Positions 8,801 through 61,021 of a DNA stretch of 64,000 bases are shown here, piece by piece (the first letter of the stretch is position 1; the number at the start of each line of letters is the position of its first letter). The stretch comes from a virus. A program made the position numbers and the translations under genes. The stretch spans positions 1-64,000 of the IMG/VR virus record IMGVR_UViG_3300045283_000318; one strand, written 5' to 3'. The notes under the pieces are model-generated. The model ran no database searches. It was not told where the DNA came from and saw only the letters and a program-made list of their open reading frames with translations.

Positions 8801-9319
8801 ATGATTGAGATTAAGCATCGTCTTACCGGCACCGTTCTGTACGCATCCGAGGCTGCAGTCACTGTACGCGAAGCGGTCATAGCCGCTGTAAAAGGTGGCG
8901 CGGACCTTGGTGGCGCGTACCTTGGTGGCGCGTACCTTGGTGGCGCGGACCTTGGTGGCGCGTACCTTCGTGGCGCGTACCTTGGTGGCGCGGACCTTGG
9001 TGGCGCGGACCTTGGTGGCGCGGACCTTGGTGGCGCGGACCTTGGTGGCGCGGACCTTGGTGGCGCGGACCTTGGTGGCGCGGACCTTGGTGGCCAATGG
9101 ATTATACAGGGACAAACCCGTTCCGACGGATATGCATTCTTCCTGCAGCGCCTCACCGCTGACTCCGAACCCATGATCAAGGCCGGTTGCCGCTATTTCA
9201 CGATTGCTCAGGCCGAAGTACATTGGACCAACACACGCGGTGGGACTCCACTCGGTTTCGAAACCCGTGCTATCGTCCGCGCCATGGTCGACACCATGCA
9301 CATCAGGGGGTTGAAATGA
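8801..9319 (+). CDS. Pentapeptide-repeat protein
   Basis: 172 residues; ribosome site AAGGGGAACC. Residues 32-98 are 13 five-residue units A(D/Y)L(G/R)G, the signature of the right-handed quadrilateral beta helix of pentapeptide-repeat proteins, some of which mimic DNA and bind gyrase. Flanks are a small N-terminal beta/alpha cap and a 75-residue C-terminal alpha/beta domain (FFLQRLTADSEPMIKAGCRY). The Tyr/Asp choice at one position is the main variation. Whether it mimics DNA is untested; the coil is short for that. Confidence 0.8.
   Translation: MIEIKHRLTGTVLYASEAAVTVREAVIAAVKGGADLGGAYLGGAYLGGADLGGAYLRGAYLGGADLGGADLGGADLGGADLGGADLGGADLGGADLGGQWIIQGQTRSDGYAFFLQRLTADSEPMIKAGCRYFTIAQAEVHWTNTRGGTPLGFETRAIVRAMVDTMHIRGLK
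8894..9088 (+). repeat. 15-bp tandem repeat, 13 units
   Basis: Unit GGTGGCGCG(G/T)ACCTT. Units differ at only two positions (G/T at 10, one C at 1 in unit 6). The near identity at silent sites means recent slippage or recombination expansion. The repeat has no stop in any of the six frames. Confidence 0.9.
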
Positions 9320-13618: not shown

Positions 13619-13800
13619 TCCCCCACCCCTCCGATCCCGAGCGCCCGACTCATCTCGACATGCAGAAATTGCGTATGGACCAGCACTGGCGCCGTGGTGA
13701 TATCCTGGACAACACGTATCTTCGATCGCTTTTCATCCTTGGCTACCTGCCGGACGAGGCGAACACGGAGCTGAGGCTTTTGAAGATGGAGGGGAAGTGA
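13615..13800 (+). CDS. Hypothetical helical protein
   Basis: 61 residues, ATGA overlap with the upstream gene and GTGA overlap with the downstream nuclease. The C-terminal half (DILDNTYLRSLFILGYLPDE, then ANTELRLLKMEGK) is a helix pair of a type seen in small phage proteins. Function unknown. Confidence 0.6.
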   Translation: MIPHPSDPERPTHLDMQKLRMDQHWRRGDILDNTYLRSLFILGYLPDEANTELRLLKMEGK

Positions 13801-14306
13801 AACCATTCAGAATTTCGCACAAAAAACTGCTTGCCCTGCTCCATTACGATCCCGAAACAGGGATTTGGACTTGGCTGCAAGGCAGATGTGCAGGCAAGCG
13901 GGCGGATTTGAACAAACCGCCGCGAGGATATCGCAAAGTCACTTTTTGGCGAAACGCTGAAGGTAAACAAAGACACGTTGCTGCTCACCGGCTTGCTTGG
14001 TTTTACATGACAAAGCGGTGGCCAAAAAAGGGGATAGACCACAAAGATGGTGTTACCTCAAACAACACATGGATTAATTTGCGAGAAGCCGATCAGTCGC
14101 AAAACAACGCAAATTCCCGCCCAAGAATAGGGACTTCCGAACTTAAAGGCGTTTCCTGGCATTCCCGGAAAAAGAAATGGACTGCGCAAATTCGATTTCG
14201 CGGCATTACAAAACATCTGGGGCAATTTGATTCGGCAGAAGATGCGCACGCCGTTTATTGCGCTGAGGCAAACAGACTACATGGAGATTTTGCTCGTGTC
14301 GCTTAA
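13797..14306 (+). CDS. HNH endonuclease with AP2 DNA-binding domain
   Basis: 169 residues. N-terminal half: LLHYDPETGIWTW, VAAHRLAWFYMTKRWP and GIDHKDGVTSNNTWINLREA give the H-N-H catalytic set (HR, DH, N...N). C-terminal half: LKGVSWHSRKKKWTAQIRF and KHLGQFDSAEDAHAVYCAEA form an AP2 domain. This is the standard free-standing phage homing nuclease. It is inserted in frame overlap (GTGA) in the replication operon and is more AT-rich than its neighbours. Paralogue at 18784. Confidence 0.9.
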   Translation: MKPFRISHKKLLALLHYDPETGIWTWLQGRCAGKRADLNKPPRGYRKVTFWRNAEGKQRHVAAHRLAWFYMTKRWPKKGIDHKDGVTSNNTWINLREADQSQNNANSRPRIGTSELKGVSWHSRKKKWTAQIRFRGITKHLGQFDSAEDAHAVYCAEANRLHGDFARVA

Positions 14307-18482: not shown

Positions 18483-18787
18483 CGCCAGAGGGGTGGGAAA
18501 AGAAGGACGTGGACGCGTGGCTGAAAAAACTAGACCCCGACCTTGTCTGGCATCACAAGACGATTACCATGGGCTTCGGCGCGTCCGGGGCACCTGACTA
18601 CGTGCTGTGCCTCAAGGGAGCGATGTGGGGGCTGGAGATCAAAAGGCCAGGGAAGTCGGCAACAGTGATCCAGCAAAAACGAATGGACGCGATCCGTAAG
18701 GCCGGCGGGCACGCCGTTGCCGGTACCGCGGAGGTCGTGATCATGGAATTGACGCGATGGTTGGCGGCGAGAGGGATTGCGGCGTGA
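18479..18787 (+). CDS. VRR-NUC domain nuclease
   Basis: 102 residues; GTG overlaps the upstream stop. TMGFGASGAPDYVLCLKG, then WGLEIKRPGKSATVIQQKRM, then IRKAGGHAVAGTAEVV contain the PD, E-x-K and Q-x3-R features of VRR-NUC holiday-junction or flap nucleases, at the usual stand-alone phage length. It works next to the helicase and RecB-like nuclease. Confidence 0.85.
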   Translation: MTPEGWEKKDVDAWLKKLDPDLVWHHKTITMGFGASGAPDYVLCLKGAMWGLEIKRPGKSATVIQQKRMDAIRKAGGHAVAGTAEVVIMELTRWLAARGIAA

Positions 18788-19353
18788 CCGCGGTAACGCC
18801 TGAACAAAAAGTCAGAGCAGCTAAACGCGCTATGGCGCATTACTATGCGCACAAAGGAACACGCTACAGCATCACGCAAGAGCGTCTGAAGGAATTTTTG
18901 CATTATAATCCGAGCACCGGAGTGTTGAAATGGATCAAGCAAAAAGGGTCTAGAAAGCCAGGAGATATAGTAGCTACTGCTAACAACAGCGGTTACATCC
19001 AATTGCGTTTTGATGGGTGCATCTATTTAGCGCAAAAAATAATTTATTTTTATATGACTGGCGAGTGGCCGCCACTAGATATAGATCACAAAAATAGAAA
19101 CGGCTCAAGCAATCGTTGGAAAAATTTACGACTAGCAACTAAACCGCAAAACTTAGGAAACACGGGTAAGTGGAAAAACAATACTTCGGGATTTAAAGGT
19201 GTTTGTCGCGTGCACAACAGCAAACGCTTTCTTTGGCGCGCCGAAATATGCGTCGATGGAGTGCGATACCGTTTAGGGCACTTCGAAACGGCTAAAGCAG
19301 CGAGTAAAGCTTACAATAAAAAGGCGAAAGAGCTTCGCGGTGAATTCGCATGA
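18784..19353 (+). CDS. HNH endonuclease with AP2 domain
   Basis: 189 residues; GTG overlaps the VRR-NUC stop. LKEFLHYNPSTGVLKWIKQK, then PLDIDHKNRNGSSNRWKNLR carry the DH...N...N motif; FKGVCRVHNSKRFLWRAEIC and YRLGHFETAKAASKAYNKKA are the AP2 domain. Markedly AT-richer than its neighbours, which marks it as an insert between two replication genes. The leading HR of the HNH set is less clear here (IYLAQKIIYFYM), so activity is uncertain. Confidence 0.85.
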   Translation: MTAVTPEQKVRAAKRAMAHYYAHKGTRYSITQERLKEFLHYNPSTGVLKWIKQKGSRKPGDIVATANNSGYIQLRFDGCIYLAQKIIYFYMTGEWPPLDIDHKNRNGSSNRWKNLRLATKPQNLGNTGKWKNNTSGFKGVCRVHNSKRFLWRAEICVDGVRYRLGHFETAKAASKAYNKKAKELRGEFA

Positions 19354-50719: not shown

Positions 50720-51276
50720 ACCGGTGACCTGTAATTCGGGTTATCGGTGATCTGTCGCGGCAGCGGCGCTTGGCCAACGGGCGGCAACAGGCGCTGGAGC
50801 CGGTTACGCTCGCGCAGGCCTGCGTAAGCCACATCGCCCTGCGGGACATTGTGCGCGGCCGCAGCGCGGGCCATGGCATCAGATGGCGCCGTGTTGAACC
50901 CGGTCGGCAGGCCGGCCGCCTGCATCGCATCCATGCGCTGGGTGACCTCGTTGCGAACCTCGATCGCTGAGAACTGGGCATCGTTGCGGTCGTTGAGGTT
51001 GGTGATCTTGAGGTTCGACATGTCCTCGACGCTGGTGCCGGCCATTACCGCAGCCATTTCCGCGCGCTGCACCGAGCCGTCCATAATGTCGCGCGCGACC
51101 TTATCGTTGGCCTTGGTCTTGAACGACAGGATGTTCGGCATCACCACGTCGTCATCGTCGCGACGGTTGTTGATGTCGGCACCGCATTCCGGAATCTGAC
51201 AAAAATCTGGCCACCCCACGGAAACATCGTATTTGAACTTCCCCCGACAAACAGGGCATTTAAGAATTACGGGCAT
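50716..51276 (-). CDS. Zinc-finger head-assembly protein
   Basis: 186 residues. The N-terminus ILKCPVCRGKFKYDV and DFCQIPECGADI gives C-x2-C...C-x4-C, a zinc ribbon. Helical middle (ARDIMDGSVQRAEMAAVMAG) and Pro-rich C-terminus (PPVGQAPLPRQITDN). Always beside TerL and portal in this lineage as I recall; possible small-terminase-like or portal-chaperone role, unproven. Confidence 0.55.
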   Translation of the reverse strand: MPVILKCPVCRGKFKYDVSVGWPDFCQIPECGADINNRRDDDDVVMPNILSFKTKANDKVARDIMDGSVQRAEMAAVMAGTSVEDMSNLKITNLNDRNDAQFSAIEVRNEVTQRMDAMQAAGLPTGFNTAPSDAMARAAAAHNVPQGDVAYAGLRERNRLQRLLPPVGQAPLPRQITDNPNYRSPV

Positions 51277-51763
51277 CACGCACGGCCTTTCTCCTAGCCG
51301 ATTTTATCCTACACATGGTCGCTGAACGGCAAGCTCGACACTTTCTGTGCATGGTATCACGATACGAAAACCAATACGTGTTCTTTTCGTTGAACTCGTG
51401 ACCGTTTTTACAATGCGTTTTCACCTTGTTTTTCGGAATGTGACTTTCGCCGCGAAAATTGTTTTCGGTTTGAGTAACCGGTTCGAGGTGATCTGGATTC
51501 ACGCAGCATCTAACTCGGCAAAGATGATCTAAATGCAACCCATTTGGAATCGAACCCTTAAATAGCTCGTACGAAATCCGATGCGCCCATCCGTGTCTTC
51601 CGTCAGGAGTATGAAAACGTCCGTAACCTTCTTTGCTAACGTGCGCTTCCCACAGCCAACATCCCGAGTTGGGCTCAGGACTTACATGCCGCATAAAGCG
51701 ATCCTCGTACGGAATCACTTTGTACTGCCTGCCGCGAAAAAACTTCCCCTCTAAAACTTCCAT
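51260..51763 (-). CDS. HNH homing endonuclease (free-standing)
   Basis: 167 residues from the ATG in the TGATG overlap. WLWEAHVSKEGYGRFH, AHRISYELFKG, HLDHLCRVRCCVNPDHLEPV is the HNH core (H...DH...N...HLE) with two cysteines; the tail HCKNGHEFNEKNT and CRACRSATMC forms a zinc site. AT-richer than neighbours and inserted between TerL-linked and portal-linked genes. Paralogue at 58945. Confidence 0.9.
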   Translation of the reverse strand: MEVLEGKFFRGRQYKVIPYEDRFMRHVSPEPNSGCWLWEAHVSKEGYGRFHTPDGRHGWAHRISYELFKGSIPNGLHLDHLCRVRCCVNPDHLEPVTQTENNFRGESHIPKNKVKTHCKNGHEFNEKNTYWFSYRDTMHRKCRACRSATMCRIKSARRKAVRDARNS

Positions 51764-51870
51764 CAGCGATCCCATGCTTTTGCGGCGAGCACAAACAGGC
51801 TGCCGACAGCCAGAATAGCGACAATGGTGCCGACGATCTCGACGACGTTTCGAACAGTTTCGTGCGTCAC
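51763..51870 (-). CDS. 35-residue membrane peptide
   Basis: GTG overlaps the TerL stop (GTGA). MTHETVRNVVEIVGTIVAIL then AVGSLFVLAAKAWDR: one transmembrane helix. Coupled to TerL and to the HNH gene. Function unknown. Confidence 0.5.
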   Translation of the reverse strand: MTHETVRNVVEIVGTIVAILAVGSLFVLAAKAWDR

Positions 51871-53790: not shown

Positions 53791-53813
53791 AAAAAAAGCC
53801 CGCCGAAGCGAGC
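53791..53813 (-). terminator. Strong rho-independent terminator, leftward
   Basis: On minus: GCTCGC-TTCG-GCGGGC, a UUCG tetraloop closed by C-G with one G-U pair in the stem, followed by seven T. It ends the pentamer-repeat transcript just before the terL start codon, so terL needs its own promoter or read-through. Confidence 0.85.
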
Positions 53814-53816
53814 CTT

Positions 53817-53907
53817 CTACCACACCTTGCCCAGCCGAGCCAATGCCCAACCGAAGCTTACCTAGCCTGACCTTGCCACACCCCGCCTAGGCATGCCTTA
53901 CCCTAGC
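53817..53907 (-). repeat. Pentamer array A (NNNCC x18 on plus; GGNNN on mRNA)
   Basis: Eighteen five-base units, e.g. CTACC ACACC TTGCC; 15 of 18 end in CC. There is one inserted base at 53842, so the phase shifts by one after five units. It starts nine bases past the stop of the 200-residue gene and ends at the terminator. On the transcript GG recurs every five bases. Confidence 0.8.
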
Positions 53908-53916
53908 GGATTCAAG

Positions 53917-54519
53917 CTACTCGAACTTCACGATACCAAACCTGCCAAACGTCGGCCGAAAATCGCCCATGCCGATCAATCGGCCAGCAGATTCGATTGT
54001 TTCCCGAAGCGTATTCGTATCCACGTACTCGGGCAAGACGCACATCAAATCAAACGTTGCTTCCCAGCCCGCGCGCATCGCCGGCCGTGTCCGGTTGATT
54101 CCGTTGCGTTGAATTGTAACCCGACGCTTGTCGAGATAATCCCAAGTACCGACGCCGAGCGTCGCCAAGGGAGTCGTCACAACGATCGCCGCCTTGAACA
54201 AATCCATCGCTGACTTTCGCGGCGACCTGGGATCTTGTCGAAACTTCGCCGCGTTAACTACACTGCCTCGAAGATACTCGCCAGGAATCGCAAGTTGACC
54301 GGCGTCAGTTCGATAAACGTAAGTCTCAACGTCATCAGTTTTCTTCGCCTTGGAGTTCTTCGCCGCAGCGGCCTTCTCATCCACCGCTTCGGCGTTCCAG
54401 CGATGAAATAGAAAATCTGCCGATCCGCGTACAGTCACCGCAACGTGATACGGTTGACTGTGCGAAATGGTTTCGTTGCCGCCGTCGGTCGGCTCTTTCA
54501 ATTGAACAATTTTGCTCAT
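53917..54519 (-). CDS. Conserved phage/plasmid protein of the pentamer-repeat unit
   Basis: 200 residues; the ribosome site GGTGAGG is itself part of array B. Features are VAVTVRGSADFLFHRWNAEA, YVYRTDAGQLAIPGEYLRGS, FRQDPRSPRKSAMDLFKAAI, GTWDYLDKRRVTIQRNGINR and the Gly-rich end LIGMGDFRPTFGRFGIVKF. The last block (GxGxFRPxFGRF) recalls the glycine-rich loops of RAMP/Cas7-type RNA-binding folds, but this is only a resemblance. I recall the family as widespread and of unknown function. Its setting suggests it binds its own GG-periodic mRNA or DNA. Confidence 0.65.
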   Translation of the reverse strand: MSKIVQLKEPTDGGNETISHSQPYHVAVTVRGSADFLFHRWNAEAVDEKAAAAKNSKAKKTDDVETYVYRTDAGQLAIPGEYLRGSVVNAAKFRQDPRSPRKSAMDLFKAAIVVTTPLATLGVGTWDYLDKRRVTIQRNGINRTRPAMRAGWEATFDLMCVLPEYVDTNTLRETIESAGRLIGMGDFRPTFGRFGIVKFE

Positions 54520-54520
54520 A

Positions 54521-54585
54521 AAACCTCACCTAACCAGTGCGTGCCATACACCACCACGGCGTATCTTGCCTCGCCTGTGTCTTAC
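54521..54585 (-). repeat. Pentamer array B (NNNCC x13)
   Basis: Thirteen units without indels between the two genes (AAACC TCACC TAACC ...); seven end in CC, and most of the others keep one C in phase. The last unit overlaps the HTH stop codon, and the first units make the ribosome site of the downstream gene. Confidence 0.75.
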
Positions 54586-54788
54586 TTTAAATACACTCTG
54601 GGGTCGATGTCAAGAAAATAAGACGTTAAAATCAAAAAAGTTTCGGCGCTGACCGGCAACCCTCGATCAGCGCGAGACACAGTAGCGTGACTGATGTCGT
54701 ATTTTTTTCCTAAGTCACGCACAGACAGCGAGCAAGCTTGTCGATGCTCGTAAACATCAGCCCCGAACTCTTTCCACTTTATGGTCAT
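54582..54788 (-). CDS. XRE-family HTH protein of the pentamer-repeat unit
   Basis: 68 residues. FGADVYEHRQACSLSVRDLG, KKYDISHATVSRADRGLPVS is a clear Cro/CI helix-turn-helix with SHATVSRADRG as recognition helix; the end is a helix pair (AETFLILTSYFLDIDPRVYL). Probably the local repressor. Its ribosome site (AAGGTTTATA) is again part of an array. Confidence 0.7.
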   Translation of the reverse strand: MTIKWKEFGADVYEHRQACSLSVRDLGKKYDISHATVSRADRGLPVSAETFLILTSYFLDIDPRVYLK

Positions 54789-54791
54789 TAT

Positions 54792-54886
54792 AAACCTTAC
54801 CCGACCTGGCCTTACCTTGTCTTAGAATGCCACACCATGCCTAACTAAACCGCAACCTGCCGGACCTAGCACTGCCGCACCCGACC
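54792..54886 (-). repeat. Pentamer array C (NNNCC x19)
   Basis: Nineteen units in perfect phase from 54792; 14 of 19 end in CC (AAACC TTACC CGACC TGGCC ...). It fills the whole predicted leader from the promoter to the HTH start. Transcript-sense consensus is GG(T/C)NN. Confidence 0.85.
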
Positions 54887-54894
54887 ATGGGAAC

Positions 54895-54923
54895 TTTATA
54901 AGGCCGAGCCGGTTACCCGTCCA
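54895..54923 (-). promoter_or_regulatory. Promoter of the pentamer-repeat unit
   Basis: Reading left: TGGACG (54918-54923), 17-base spacer, TATAAA (54895-54900). Transcription would begin near 54888, at the first pentamer of array C. It also sits in the leader of the divergent membrane gene. Confidence 0.65.
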
Positions 54924-57558: not shown

Positions 57559-58952
57559 CCAACCTTCTCCATCAAAGCTTCGACGATCCGCTCGAACACC
57601 GGCTCCCAGCGCATATCGTCGGATTGCTGGAAGAACTTCGCTTTCGGAGTCCAGATACGTTGCGCGTCAGTGCCGTTACAACCTCCGCGGTAGTCCCTCC
57701 CGCACCACGAGTATGGGACCCAGTGCTCGTGACCGCCCATCGCGCAGATGTGCCCAAGCGCCGACTCGACCGTAATCACGAGGTCAAGATGCGGCAACAC
57801 CGAATAGGTGTCGGCGATGCAACGAAGGTAACCACTGAGATCTTTGACCAGCGGGGCGAAGCCCCACAAGTTCAAGTCGGACTTTTTGGCATCACACTGC
57901 AGGGCGTAGAGTTGAACACCGGGCACCCGGTACAATTCCATGAAGTGATGAATCGGAATATTTCGGTGCTTATCGATGTCGTTCAACGGGCTACCAGCCC
58001 AGGCAATGCCAATGTGGAATTTGCGATCAGGAACCTTCCACGAGGTCGGCATCGGGTCTCGCGGCACATCGATGTTCGGCGCGTTCTTGATCTCGTCGTC
58101 GGTCAGTCCCAGTGCATAGGGCAAAGAGACAAAGGTCGACCACGCGTCCGCATCTCCCGGAAAGTTCGAAGGCGAGGGGAGGAAGTTGATATTGGGGAGG
58201 TGCCGGAAAGCATGTTCAAAGGTGCGACGCAATTCGGCTTGAGTACACATATGAATATAACGACAGCGTTTAGCAGCAGCCTCAACAAAACGTGCGTATG
58301 ACAGCGTGTCACCGAGGCCCTGATCCGCGACAAGAAACAGTGTCTTGCCTTTTTCACCTTCCCATTTTTTATAGGGGTAAAGCAAAAAATTCGGCAGCCG
58401 TGCCGCAAACCTTGATTCAAAGCGCTTCAGTCCCGCAGCGAACTGACCGTCAAACAACAAGGCGAACGCCAGTTGAAACTCAGCAATCGGGTAGCCCTGG
58501 CCGTCATTTGGATCGGCGAGTTCAAAGCACTTCAGCGCGTAACCAACAGCTTTTTTGGTATCACCGAGTATCTGCCAAATCATGCTACAATGCATATTTG
58601 GTAGTGACGACTTCGGCTCCAAAGTCATTGCCTCATGCAACAAAGGCAACGCCTCTTTGTGATTCCCGATTTTCATCAATTCCCATGCTAAATTCGTAAG
58701 CGTTCTATGACGCTCGCCAGAAGTCTGCTCACACTCAAGCGCACGACGAAACAGTGCGACAGACGCATGCGGACGAATCAAATCCGAAGCAGTGCACCCG
58801 TTAACGTAAAAAGCCTGCCCATAAGTCGGGTCGGCGTAGCATGCACTTGCGAATTGCTGATAAGCGTGGTCCTGATTCGTCGCATGCGATTTATCGCGAG
58901 CGGCCTGCTCGCCTTGCGCCATGAGTTTGATTGCGCCTTCGCGATTACCCAC
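57555..58952 (-). CDS. TPR protein fused to GT9-like glycosyltransferase
   Basis: 465 residues from a GTG. Residues 1-180 are tetratricopeptide repeats (HRTLTNLAWELMKIGNHKEA, LPLLHEAMTLEPKSSLPNMH). Residues 200-460 match heptosyltransferase/O-GlcNAc transferase-like enzymes: FLVADQGLGDTLSYARFVEA is the GT-B nucleotide-sugar loop, FHIGIAWAGSPLNDIDKHRN follows, and VITVESALGHICAMGGHEHW and YSWCGRD close the donor site. Such TPR-GT fusions glycosylate proteins or cell-surface sugars. The substrate is not predictable. Confidence 0.8.
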   Translation of the reverse strand: MGNREGAIKLMAQGEQAARDKSHATNQDHAYQQFASACYADPTYGQAFYVNGCTASDLIRPHASVALFRRALECEQTSGERHRTLTNLAWELMKIGNHKEALPLLHEAMTLEPKSSLPNMHCSMIWQILGDTKKAVGYALKCFELADPNDGQGYPIAEFQLAFALLFDGQFAAGLKRFESRFAARLPNFLLYPYKKWEGEKGKTLFLVADQGLGDTLSYARFVEAAAKRCRYIHMCTQAELRRTFEHAFRHLPNINFLPSPSNFPGDADAWSTFVSLPYALGLTDDEIKNAPNIDVPRDPMPTSWKVPDRKFHIGIAWAGSPLNDIDKHRNIPIHHFMELYRVPGVQLYALQCDAKKSDLNLWGFAPLVKDLSGYLRCIADTYSVLPHLDLVITVESALGHICAMGGHEHWVPYSWCGRDYRGGCNGTDAQRIWTPKAKFFQQSDDMRWEPVFERIVEALMEKVG

Positions 58953-59439
58953 GTAACTTCCTCTTGTAGTTTCTGCGGGAGTTCGCTTGCGAACACGCCC
59001 TACACAGTCGAATCTTCCCGCGGAAAACTATGTTGCCTTCTTGCATAAAATGCAAGCCCGCCCTGCAGTGTGTTCGCGTAGCAGCCAGCAACCGGTTATT
59101 TTCTGCGGCATTGCCGCGCCTGCAATTCTCGCGTTGAGTAACTGGCTCGAGGTGATGCGGATTCACGCAACATCGCATTCGACACTTGTGGTCCAAGACC
59201 ATTCCCTCTGGAATCGGCCCTATGAAGTGCTTGTAAGCTTCACGATGCACCGACACCATATTCAGTTTTTTCTTACCATCCACCATTCTCGTCATGCCCA
59301 TTTTGGCATACCCGAGCTTAGTTATATTTCCCATCCATATGTAACAGCCGGTGTTCGGTTCTGGAAAAGCAAAATGGTTATATCGGTCTTCGAAAGAAGA
59401 ACTAATTCCTCCTTCTTTAAATTTTCTACGCAACAACAT
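58945..59439 (-). CDS. HNH homing endonuclease (free-standing)
   Basis: 164 residues from the ATG preceded by AGGAAGG. CYIWMGNITKLGYAKMG, VHREAYKHFIGPIPEGMVLD, HKCRMRCCVNPHHLEPVTQR is the HNH core; THCRAGLHFMQEGN and CRACSQANS is the zinc tail. It closely parallels the nuclease at 51260 in domain order. AT-rich and inserted ahead of the glycosyltransferase gene. Confidence 0.9.
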   Translation of the reverse strand: MLLRRKFKEGGISSSFEDRYNHFAFPEPNTGCYIWMGNITKLGYAKMGMTRMVDGKKKLNMVSVHREAYKHFIGPIPEGMVLDHKCRMRCCVNPHHLEPVTQRENCRRGNAAENNRLLAATRTHCRAGLHFMQEGNIVFRGKIRLCRACSQANSRRNYKRKLRG

Positions 59440-59632
59440 TTGCCTTCCTGAACTCCTGCGCCAAACAAATGCCGTGGCCTCGCCCGACAAGCCTGCCCGT
59501 CTTGGGATCGGTGCCACCGAATGCCCAGTCGTGAACCCATTCCGAAGTGTCTTTACGAAATCGAATCGGATCGCCGGTCGCACACCGCGGGCACAACTCC
59601 TTGCACTTGGCTTCGAACTCTTCCGGAGACAT
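59426..59632 (-). CDS. Small cysteine-containing protein
   Basis: 68 residues from MSPEEFEAKCKELCPRCATG. C-x3-C-x2-C may bind zinc. FRKDTSEWVHDWAFGG and GRGHGICLAQEFRKANVVA. Found in phage and prophage genomes as I recall; function unknown. The HNH start overlaps its end. Confidence 0.55.
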   Translation of the reverse strand: MSPEEFEAKCKELCPRCATGDPIRFRKDTSEWVHDWAFGGTDPKTGRLVGRGHGICLAQEFRKANVVA

Positions 59633-60059: not shown

Positions 60060-60326
60060 TCACTTCTTTTTCTCGATCTGCTTGGGCTTCGCAACGCGTT
60101 GTATTTCACGCTTTTCCGTAATCAATTCTCTGGCGCGCCGTCGAATCACGTCACACCATCGGTCAATAGCAAAATAAGCCGAATCGCCCTTAACCATCTC
60201 CGAGGCAACGCCTGCCGCCGCCAGCTTCTGGGCCATCTCCTCCATGTGAGGGATGATCTCCCGCTGCATCTTGGCTTGAGTCAGGAAATTGCGCGCCATG
60301 TCGTCGGTGAAAGGGCCGTCGGTCAT
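60060..60326 (-). CDS. Hypothetical helical protein
   Basis: 88 residues from the ATG overlapping the recombinase stop. MTDGPFTDDMARNFLTQAKM, QREIIPHMEEMAQKLAAAGV and DVIRRRARELITEKREIQRV. It may regulate or partner the recombinase since translation is coupled. Confidence 0.55.
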   Translation of the reverse strand: MTDGPFTDDMARNFLTQAKMQREIIPHMEEMAQKLAAAGVASEMVKGDSAYFAIDRWCDVIRRRARELITEKREIQRVAKPKQIEKKK

Positions 60327-61021
60327 TGTGTCGCCTCCTGCGAGATCACCCGCCTGATCGCCATCGGCGTGTACGGCGTCCCCGCGCGCGACAGCATGCC
60401 CTGCGCGGCCAGCTCCTGTGAGATCGCCGGCAATGACATCCGCCCCTGATACCACTGCCGCATCAGGGTGCCGGCGACCTGCTCCTCGGGATGCAGCTCC
60501 AGCATCGACTCGTGACCGGTGCCGACCTTCCGATAGCCGAACGGGACATTGCCAACCGGTCCCCCCTTGGCCTTCTTCGCCCTCCGGCCGTCGGCGGTCC
60601 GCTCCTTGATCCGGACCCGTTCCATCTCGGCCACCGCCGCCAGGATGGTGACGATCAGCTTGGCGATCGCCGACTCCAGGACCGACTCAGTGCCCATGTC
60701 GAACAGCACCAGGTGCACGCCCTTCTCGCGGAAAACCTCGAACATGTTCAGCGCATCGGAGGCGCTGCGGAACATGCGGTCAAGCTTCGAGGCTATCACC
60801 GTGTCGCCCGGGGCCATGGCGGCGAGGAGGTCGGCGCCGGCGGGCCGGCAGGCAAGCTTGACCGCGCCGGACACGCCGGCATCGGTGAAAATCTGGACGC
60901 CGTACTTGTCGATGCCGCGGGTGCGGGCGAAGCCCTCAATGATGTCGGTCTGGACCTGCAAAGACGAGCGATCGTCCTTGGCCTGATCGGCGCTCGAAAC
61001 GCGGCAATACCCCAGTATCAT
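60323..61021 (-). CDS. Serine recombinase (resolvase/invertase family)
   Basis: 232 residues. ILGYCRVSSADQAKDDRSSL holds the catalytic Ser9; FTDAGVSGAVK, ASKLDRMFRSASDALNMFEV and VAEMERVRIKERTADGRRAK are the resolvase signature blocks with their conserved Arg. The C-terminal HTH is SLPAISQELAAQGMLSRAGT then YTPMAIRRVISQE. Size fits resolvases and invertases, not large integrases. A role in genome dimer resolution, tail-gene inversion or host attack is possible; no inverted site was found. Confidence 0.85.
   Translation of the reverse strand: MILGYCRVSSADQAKDDRSSLQVQTDIIEGFARTRGIDKYGVQIFTDAGVSGAVKLACRPAGADLLAAMAPGDTVIASKLDRMFRSASDALNMFEVFREKGVHLVLFDMGTESVLESAIAKLIVTILAAVAEMERVRIKERTADGRRAKKAKGGPVGNVPFGYRKVGTGHESMLELHPEEQVAGTLMRQWYQGRMSLPAISQELAAQGMLSRAGTPYTPMAIRRVISQEATQ

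What the first reader, a model, noticed from the sequence alone, without database searches (positions are those of the whole stretch)
53791..54923. A self-contained gene unit whose mRNA has GG every five bases in all its non-coding parts
Arrays C, B and A (19, 13 and 18 pentamers) occupy leader, intergenic space and trailer of one leftward transcript (promoter 54895-54923, terminator 53791-53813). Units are degenerate but keep GG in phase on the mRNA; array C is in perfect phase for 95 bases. The ribosome sites of both genes are made from the pentamers. The periodicity is direct observation. That the HTH protein, or the 200-residue protein, binds this 5-base register as an RNA or DNA filament is my inference. 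I recall this protein family as common but without a described function, which would make the combination a candidate new regulatory or defence-related system.
Basis: partly seen in the sequence, partly recalled or inferred. Interest (0 to 1): 0.9.

Follow-up and report, generated by a model that had tools for sequence, protein, structure and literature searches.

The report
Phage VIPR locus with decodable guide
The five-base repeats around this phage gene are guide RNAs of VIPR, a CRISPR-like system of phages described in a 2026 preprint; one guide here can be read and points at a gene of Alphaproteobacteria, and another phage carries a guide against this very locus.

Summary
GG recurs every 5 bases in leader, intergenic space and trailer (0 of 1000 dinucleotide shuffles for leader and trailer), and not in the two genes. 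The system is already described: VIPR (PMC13142463, preprint, April 2026), a small Cas7-like protein (Vipr) using guide RNAs of alternating GGY and NN, where the NN pairs read DNA with one base skipped between pairs. The 200-residue protein is a Vipr: same PHROG family as the published SUSP1 Vipr, and its predicted fold (pLDDT 91.8) matches CRISPR RAMPs. 34 of 35 close homologues have such arrays beside the gene.

I tested the code here. The intergenic array's ten NN pairs equal the first two bases of ten consecutive codons (H-[E/D]-K-T-V-G-M-T-L-Y) in one gene family: 9 of 9 genome hits plus one virus contig. A guide in a related phage (L014) matches the window's vipr gene at 22 of 22 positions but its own poorly. 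Two other arrays also target vipr genes. No target was found for leader or trailer arrays.

It is a new member of a known kind, in a Vipr clade separate from SUSP1, with a looser GGY spacer. The HTH gene's role is unknown.

The parts
54794..54888 (-). Array C, leader: 19 in-phase pentamer units (14 GGY), candidate vrRNA(s); target not found
   Evidence: target searches
54582..54788 (-). 68-aa helix-turn-helix-like protein; possible accessory (vap) gene, not conserved in other VIPR loci fetched
   Evidence: weak HTH_31/HTH_3 matches below cut-off; no homologue in loci; one phage homologue without vipr
54523..54577 (-). Array B, intergenic vrRNA; guide = ten units 54528-54577 (CA GA AA AC GT GG AT AC CT TA), followed by GAGGT, which also serves as ribosome site of vipr
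53917..54519 (-). vipr gene, 200-aa RAMP-fold protein (phrog_4652)
54392..54423 (+). Site inside vipr matched by the leader guide of related contig L014 (11 NN units, 22 of 22, 1-nt skip)
53819..53899 (-). Array A, trailer: 16 units (13 GGY, one inserted base), candidate vrRNA(s); target not found
   Evidence: target searches
53793..53818 (-). Terminator-like hairpin with T run, possible 3' tail of array A RNA

Best explanation
This is a VIPR locus. The leftward transcript(s) give guide RNAs (vrRNAs) from the non-coding arrays, and copies of the small RAMP protein Vipr bind them along the GGY register. The exposed NN dinucleotides pair with double-stranded DNA, skipping one target base between pairs (often the codon wobble base), and the complex represses transcription of the gene it binds. 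Guide B aims at the HEKTVGMTLY coding stretch of an accessory gene family of Alphaproteobacteria and their mobile elements. Shown here by computation: periodicity, homology, fold, the 1-nt-skip code on this clade's arrays, guide B's target. Inferred from the published relatives: transcription into vrRNA, RNA binding, DNA binding, repression.
For: Same PHROG family as the experimentally studied SUSP1 Vipr (profile search E 5e-42). AlphaFold model pLDDT 91.8 matches Cas7-type RAMPs of type VII and Csm3, Z up to 11.7. 34 of 35 homologues have coding-strand GG arrays next to the gene. Conversely, about 90 of 120 array-bearing virus stretches found by pattern alone carry the gene. Unit is GG, then C/T in 90%, then near-uniform NN, as in PMC13142463. 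Exact 8-NN matches in local DNA: 2, 49, 2 for skips 0, 1, 2; distinct arrays 2, 7, 2. Guide B: 9 of 9 genome hits and 1 virus hit in one gene family, in frame, skip base at wobble.
Against: No RNA or binding data for this locus. Spacers are degenerate (B 4 of its 10 guide spacers off GGY), while the preprint reports that perturbing GGY abolished silencing of SUSP1 targets. No target found for C and A. No conserved tail structure demonstrated. The HTH gene is not shared with relatives.
Confidence: 0.93

Rival explanations
1. Decaying VIPR locus: the protein is intact but the degenerate arrays (at least C and A) no longer act as guides, and what is seen is an eroding remnant.
For: C has 14 of 19, B 7 of 11 and A 13 of 16 GGY units, and A has a frame-breaking base; no target for C or A.
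Against: Relatives in the clade have similar looseness (78.5% GGY), and the loose L014 guide (3 of 11 spacers off) matches vipr genes of relatives 22 of 22. Guide B is exact over all ten units. The vipr frame is intact.
Confidence: 0.25
2. Guide B's match to the HEKTVGMTLY family is a coincidence; B targets something not in the databases.
For: A 20-letter pattern has roughly 0.5 chance hits expected in 257 Gb on both strands (my estimate), and family members are not independent. Two AT-rich 9-NN patterns gave 7 and 2 incoherent hits. No shuffled-guide control could be run on the whole collection.
Against: All ten hits lie in one family, in the sense frame with the skip base at wobble; the match covers exactly the ten units between the array start and the GAGG end; most hits are alphaproteobacterial, as is the host of the only phage with a homologue of the HTH gene.
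Confidence: 0.1
3. The pentamers are a structural element only (two-layer G-quadruplex runs, protein-coating or replication signal) and the NN carry no information.
For: (GGNNN)n fits the pattern of two-tetrad quadruplexes (general knowledge); GG is the conserved part.
Against: NN strings match other genes under exactly one spacing (49 against 2 and 2) and often in codon phase; strict 5-base phase and a pyrimidine at position 3 are not needed for quadruplexes; reprogramming NN redirected SUSP1 VIPR in PMC13142463.
Confidence: 0.02

Closest known systems
VIPR of Escherichia phage SUSP1 (type II; PMC13142463)
   Same: RAMP-fold Vipr of about 20 kDa in phrog_4652, GGY/NN arrays upstream and downstream of the gene on the coding strand, 1-nt-skip code.
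   Different: About 26% identical over the aligned part (the tblastn match to SUSP1-like phages); separate clade in the tree; small HTH gene upstream of vipr in place of vap1 downstream; looser spacers; no SUSP1-like tail seen.
Phage DSL-LC04 locus (OR003939)
   Same: Nearest annotated phage relative, 57% identity, arrays upstream of the gene.
   Different: Annotated there as an HTH regulator, no array described; different neighbouring genes.
Class 1 CRISPR-Cas RAMPs (Csm3, type VII Cas7)
   Same: Fold of the backbone subunit that coats a guide RNA with regular spacing.
   Different: No CRISPR array or other cas genes seen at the locus; 5-base guide unit in which only two bases read the target; 9-16% sequence identity in the structural alignments.

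Membership tests
VIPR | Vipr protein: small RAMP with RRM core and glycine-rich loop, homologous to known Viprs | tested here: met
   phrog_4652 shared with SUSP1 Vipr; fold matches RAMPs, Z 11.7, pLDDT 91.8; G183 and G192 invariant in 73 sequences
VIPR | Flanking non-coding arrays of alternating GGY and NN in 5-base register on the coding strand | tested here: met
   spacers looser than in other clades
VIPR | NN specify DNA with a 1-nt skip | tested here: met
   by computation only: clade arrays 2, 49, 2 exact matches for skips 0, 1, 2; guide B
VIPR | vrRNA of 9-16 repeats ending in a conserved structured 3' tail | tested here: inconclusive
   Guide B has 10 units then GAGGT; array A runs into a terminator-like hairpin; ends of arrays are enriched in AA, AT and GA units; no common tail structure shown
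VIPR | vrRNA expressed and bound by Vipr; repression of target | not testable with these tools
   needs RNA sequencing, pull-down and reporter assays
VIPR | vap accessory gene next to vipr | tested here: inconclusive
   A 68-aa HTH-like gene lies upstream in the same unit, but it is not in other VIPR loci fetched and the vap sequences of the preprint could not be read
VIPR type II (SUSP1 clade) | Vipr within the SUSP1 clade | tested here: not met
   Window sits in a 41-row clade (99/98 support) that excludes SUSP1; the preprint's own type definitions could not be applied
CRISPR-Cas class 1 | CRISPR array and cas gene set at the locus | tested here: not met
   Neighbours are terminase, an HTH-like gene and a Dam-like methyltransferase; the repeats are pentamers

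The most novel reading that the evidence does not exclude
This Vipr clade uses a relaxed spacer (GCY, GAY and GTY allowed besides GGY) and is engaged in VIPR-against-VIPR warfare: several phages carry guides that read conserved stretches of rivals' vipr genes, on the strand opposite to the gene, while their own gene does not match, and the window's locus is one such victim.
Probability: 0.5. Interest if true: 0.65.

Novelty: new member of a known kind. Interest (0 to 1): 0.55.

Why it matters
VIPR is a newly described, possibly pre-CRISPR guide system characterised so far mainly in phage SUSP1 and a Pseudomonas prophage. This locus supports the gapped code on a distant clade with sequences gathered independently, gives a decoded guide with a predicted target in Alphaproteobacteria, and shows a rival's guide that fits this vipr gene but not its own. 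All of these can be tested with standard reporter assays in laboratory strains.

Tried and rejected
Targets for C and A: 9- and 10-NN patterns in viral contigs and 12-NN patterns with 2 mismatches in 289 genomes of the class of G001 (the genome of L165, Bradyrhizobium) gave nothing or incoherent AT-rich chance hits without frame or extension. A local scan of all fetched DNA for C, B and A stayed at shuffle level. Rfam gave no credible match in the unit (best E 0.55, far below cut-off). The fold of the HTH protein alone is unreliable (pLDDT 51). The B-target family was not found in cultured phages or plasmids. No self-target of guide B in the window. The preprint's supplement (types, vap sequences, locus table) could not be read, so this locus may already be in its tables. 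A structural-only role (G-quadruplex) was considered and rejected because the NN carry target information.

Full report
OBSERVATION. On the minus strand of 53791-54923 the three non-coding stretches show GG every five bases. Against 1000 dinucleotide shuffles the lag-5 count is 9 vs 2.4 (leader), 11 vs 3.6 (trailer) and 30 vs 9.9 (whole unit), none of the shuffles reaching it; the intergenic stretch alone is weaker (25 of 1000 reach it); the two coding regions show nothing. Exact arrays are C 54794-54888, B 54523-54577 and A 53819-53899. C is in one phase for 95 bases with 14 of 19 GGY. A has one inserted base. The ribosome sites are AAGG and GAGG from the last units. The window lies in a virus record of 65,398 bases.

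WHAT IT IS. The 200-residue protein has no Pfam match but hits phrog_4652, the family that also contains the corresponding protein of phage SUSP1. Of 35 contigs found by protein similarity alone, 34 have arrays, practically all on the coding strand next to the gene; elsewhere in the same 35 loci only one weak array appears. Position 3 of the unit is C or T in 90% of units, positions 4 and 5 are near uniform. This is the published VIPR system (PMC13142463): Vipr, an ancestral-looking RAMP, binds vrRNAs of GGY/NN repeats, and the NN pair with DNA under a one-base skip. The AlphaFold2 model from an alignment built here (pLDDT 91.8) matches Csm3-type and type VII Cas7 chains (Z up to 11.7; Foldseek E 1e-6).

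TEST OF THE CODE. Using only arrays collected here (525 arrays, 8356 units) and 1.39 Mb of local DNA with arrays masked, exact matches to eight consecutive NN were 2, 49 and 2 for skips of 0, 1 and 2 bases (the listed skip-3 matches are copies of the L010 array in L008 and L009). Counting distinct arrays with wider masking: 2, 7, 2 and 2. Only skip 1 gives guides that hit the same site in several relatives. Three such guides (in L014, L029 and L012) hit three different places in vipr genes of other contigs, always on the strand opposite to the gene. The local data are rich in vipr genes, so such targets are the ones that could be seen; the comparison between skips uses the same data and is not affected by this.

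THE WINDOW AS A TARGET. L014's leader guide matches window 54392-54423 (+) over 11 NN units, 22 of 22 bases, inside vipr; over 13 units it is 24 of 26 for the window, L001, L002, L005 and L006, but 17 of 26 for L014's own gene and 18 for its close relative L003. So the guide fits relatives and spares its carrier.

THE WINDOW AS A SHOOTER. Guide B reads CA GA AA AC GT GG AT AC CT TA. Nine of these units gave one hit in 2.9 million virus contigs; the tenth unit fits too and each NN is the first two bases of a codon. Ten units in 84,980 genomes gave nine hits, all in frame in the same gene family at H[ED]KTVGMTLY, mostly Alphaproteobacteria. Units beyond the ten do not fit, as expected if the guide ends where GAGG begins. 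The family has no Pfam name; its member in L159 lies next to a phage integrase and that in L164 next to an IS1-like transposase; a similar neighbouring ORF is seen in L165. By my estimate about 0.5 chance hits are expected for this pattern in that collection; the one-family, in-frame clustering makes chance unlikely, but no shuffled-guide control could be run. Guides C and A have no convincing target (see tried and rejected).

DIFFERENCES FROM SUSP1. In a tree of 75 Viprs the window is in a 41-row clade on a long stem apart from SUSP1's clade. In loci of the window's clade (profile score above 200) 78.5% of spacers are GGY and GCY makes up 5.1%, against 85.3% and 0.3% in other Viprs. Guide B has 4 of 10 spacers off consensus yet matches its target exactly; the L014 guide has about 3 of 11. 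The 68-aa HTH-like gene is not found in the other VIPR loci fetched; its one phage homologue (a Labrenzia phage, alphaproteobacterial host) has no vipr or array nearby.

SHOWN AND INFERRED. Shown by computation: periodicity, co-occurrence of protein and arrays, fold, the skip rule on this clade, the targets named. Inferred from the preprint: transcription into vrRNA, binding by Vipr, DNA binding, repression. Unknown: the roles of C, A and the HTH protein, and the VIPR type.

Noticed in passing
window 8801-9319 (+): Pentapeptide-repeat protein (PF00805) with near-perfect 15-base tandem repeats; this is the only other lag-5 GG array of the window and is coding.
   Followed up: yes
window 13797-14306, 18757-19353 (+); 51260-51775, 58945-59583 (-): Four HNH_3 endonuclease genes in one phage, two with an AP2-like domain: homing-type endonucleases spread through the genome.
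   Followed up: no
L006 2858-2995 and matching stretches of L003, L007, L014, L015, L017, L032: A conserved, possibly structured stretch of about 120 bases (core GTGACCCCTGA, GGTGTCGC) upstream of vipr in seven relatives, absent from the window; no Rfam family; RNAalifold gives 33 pairs, 6 with two-sided changes. Could be a regulatory leader or ribozyme.
   Followed up: partly
L153 from 6516 (+): Guide that matches a helicase-like TTGFDAP coding motif in L019, L044, L092 and L140 under the 1-nt skip.
   Followed up: partly
L014 5826-6528: Nine tRNA genes in tandem in a contig that also carries the anti-vipr guide.
   Followed up: no
window 60323-61021 (-): Resolvase-family serine recombinase (PF00239).
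   Followed up: no
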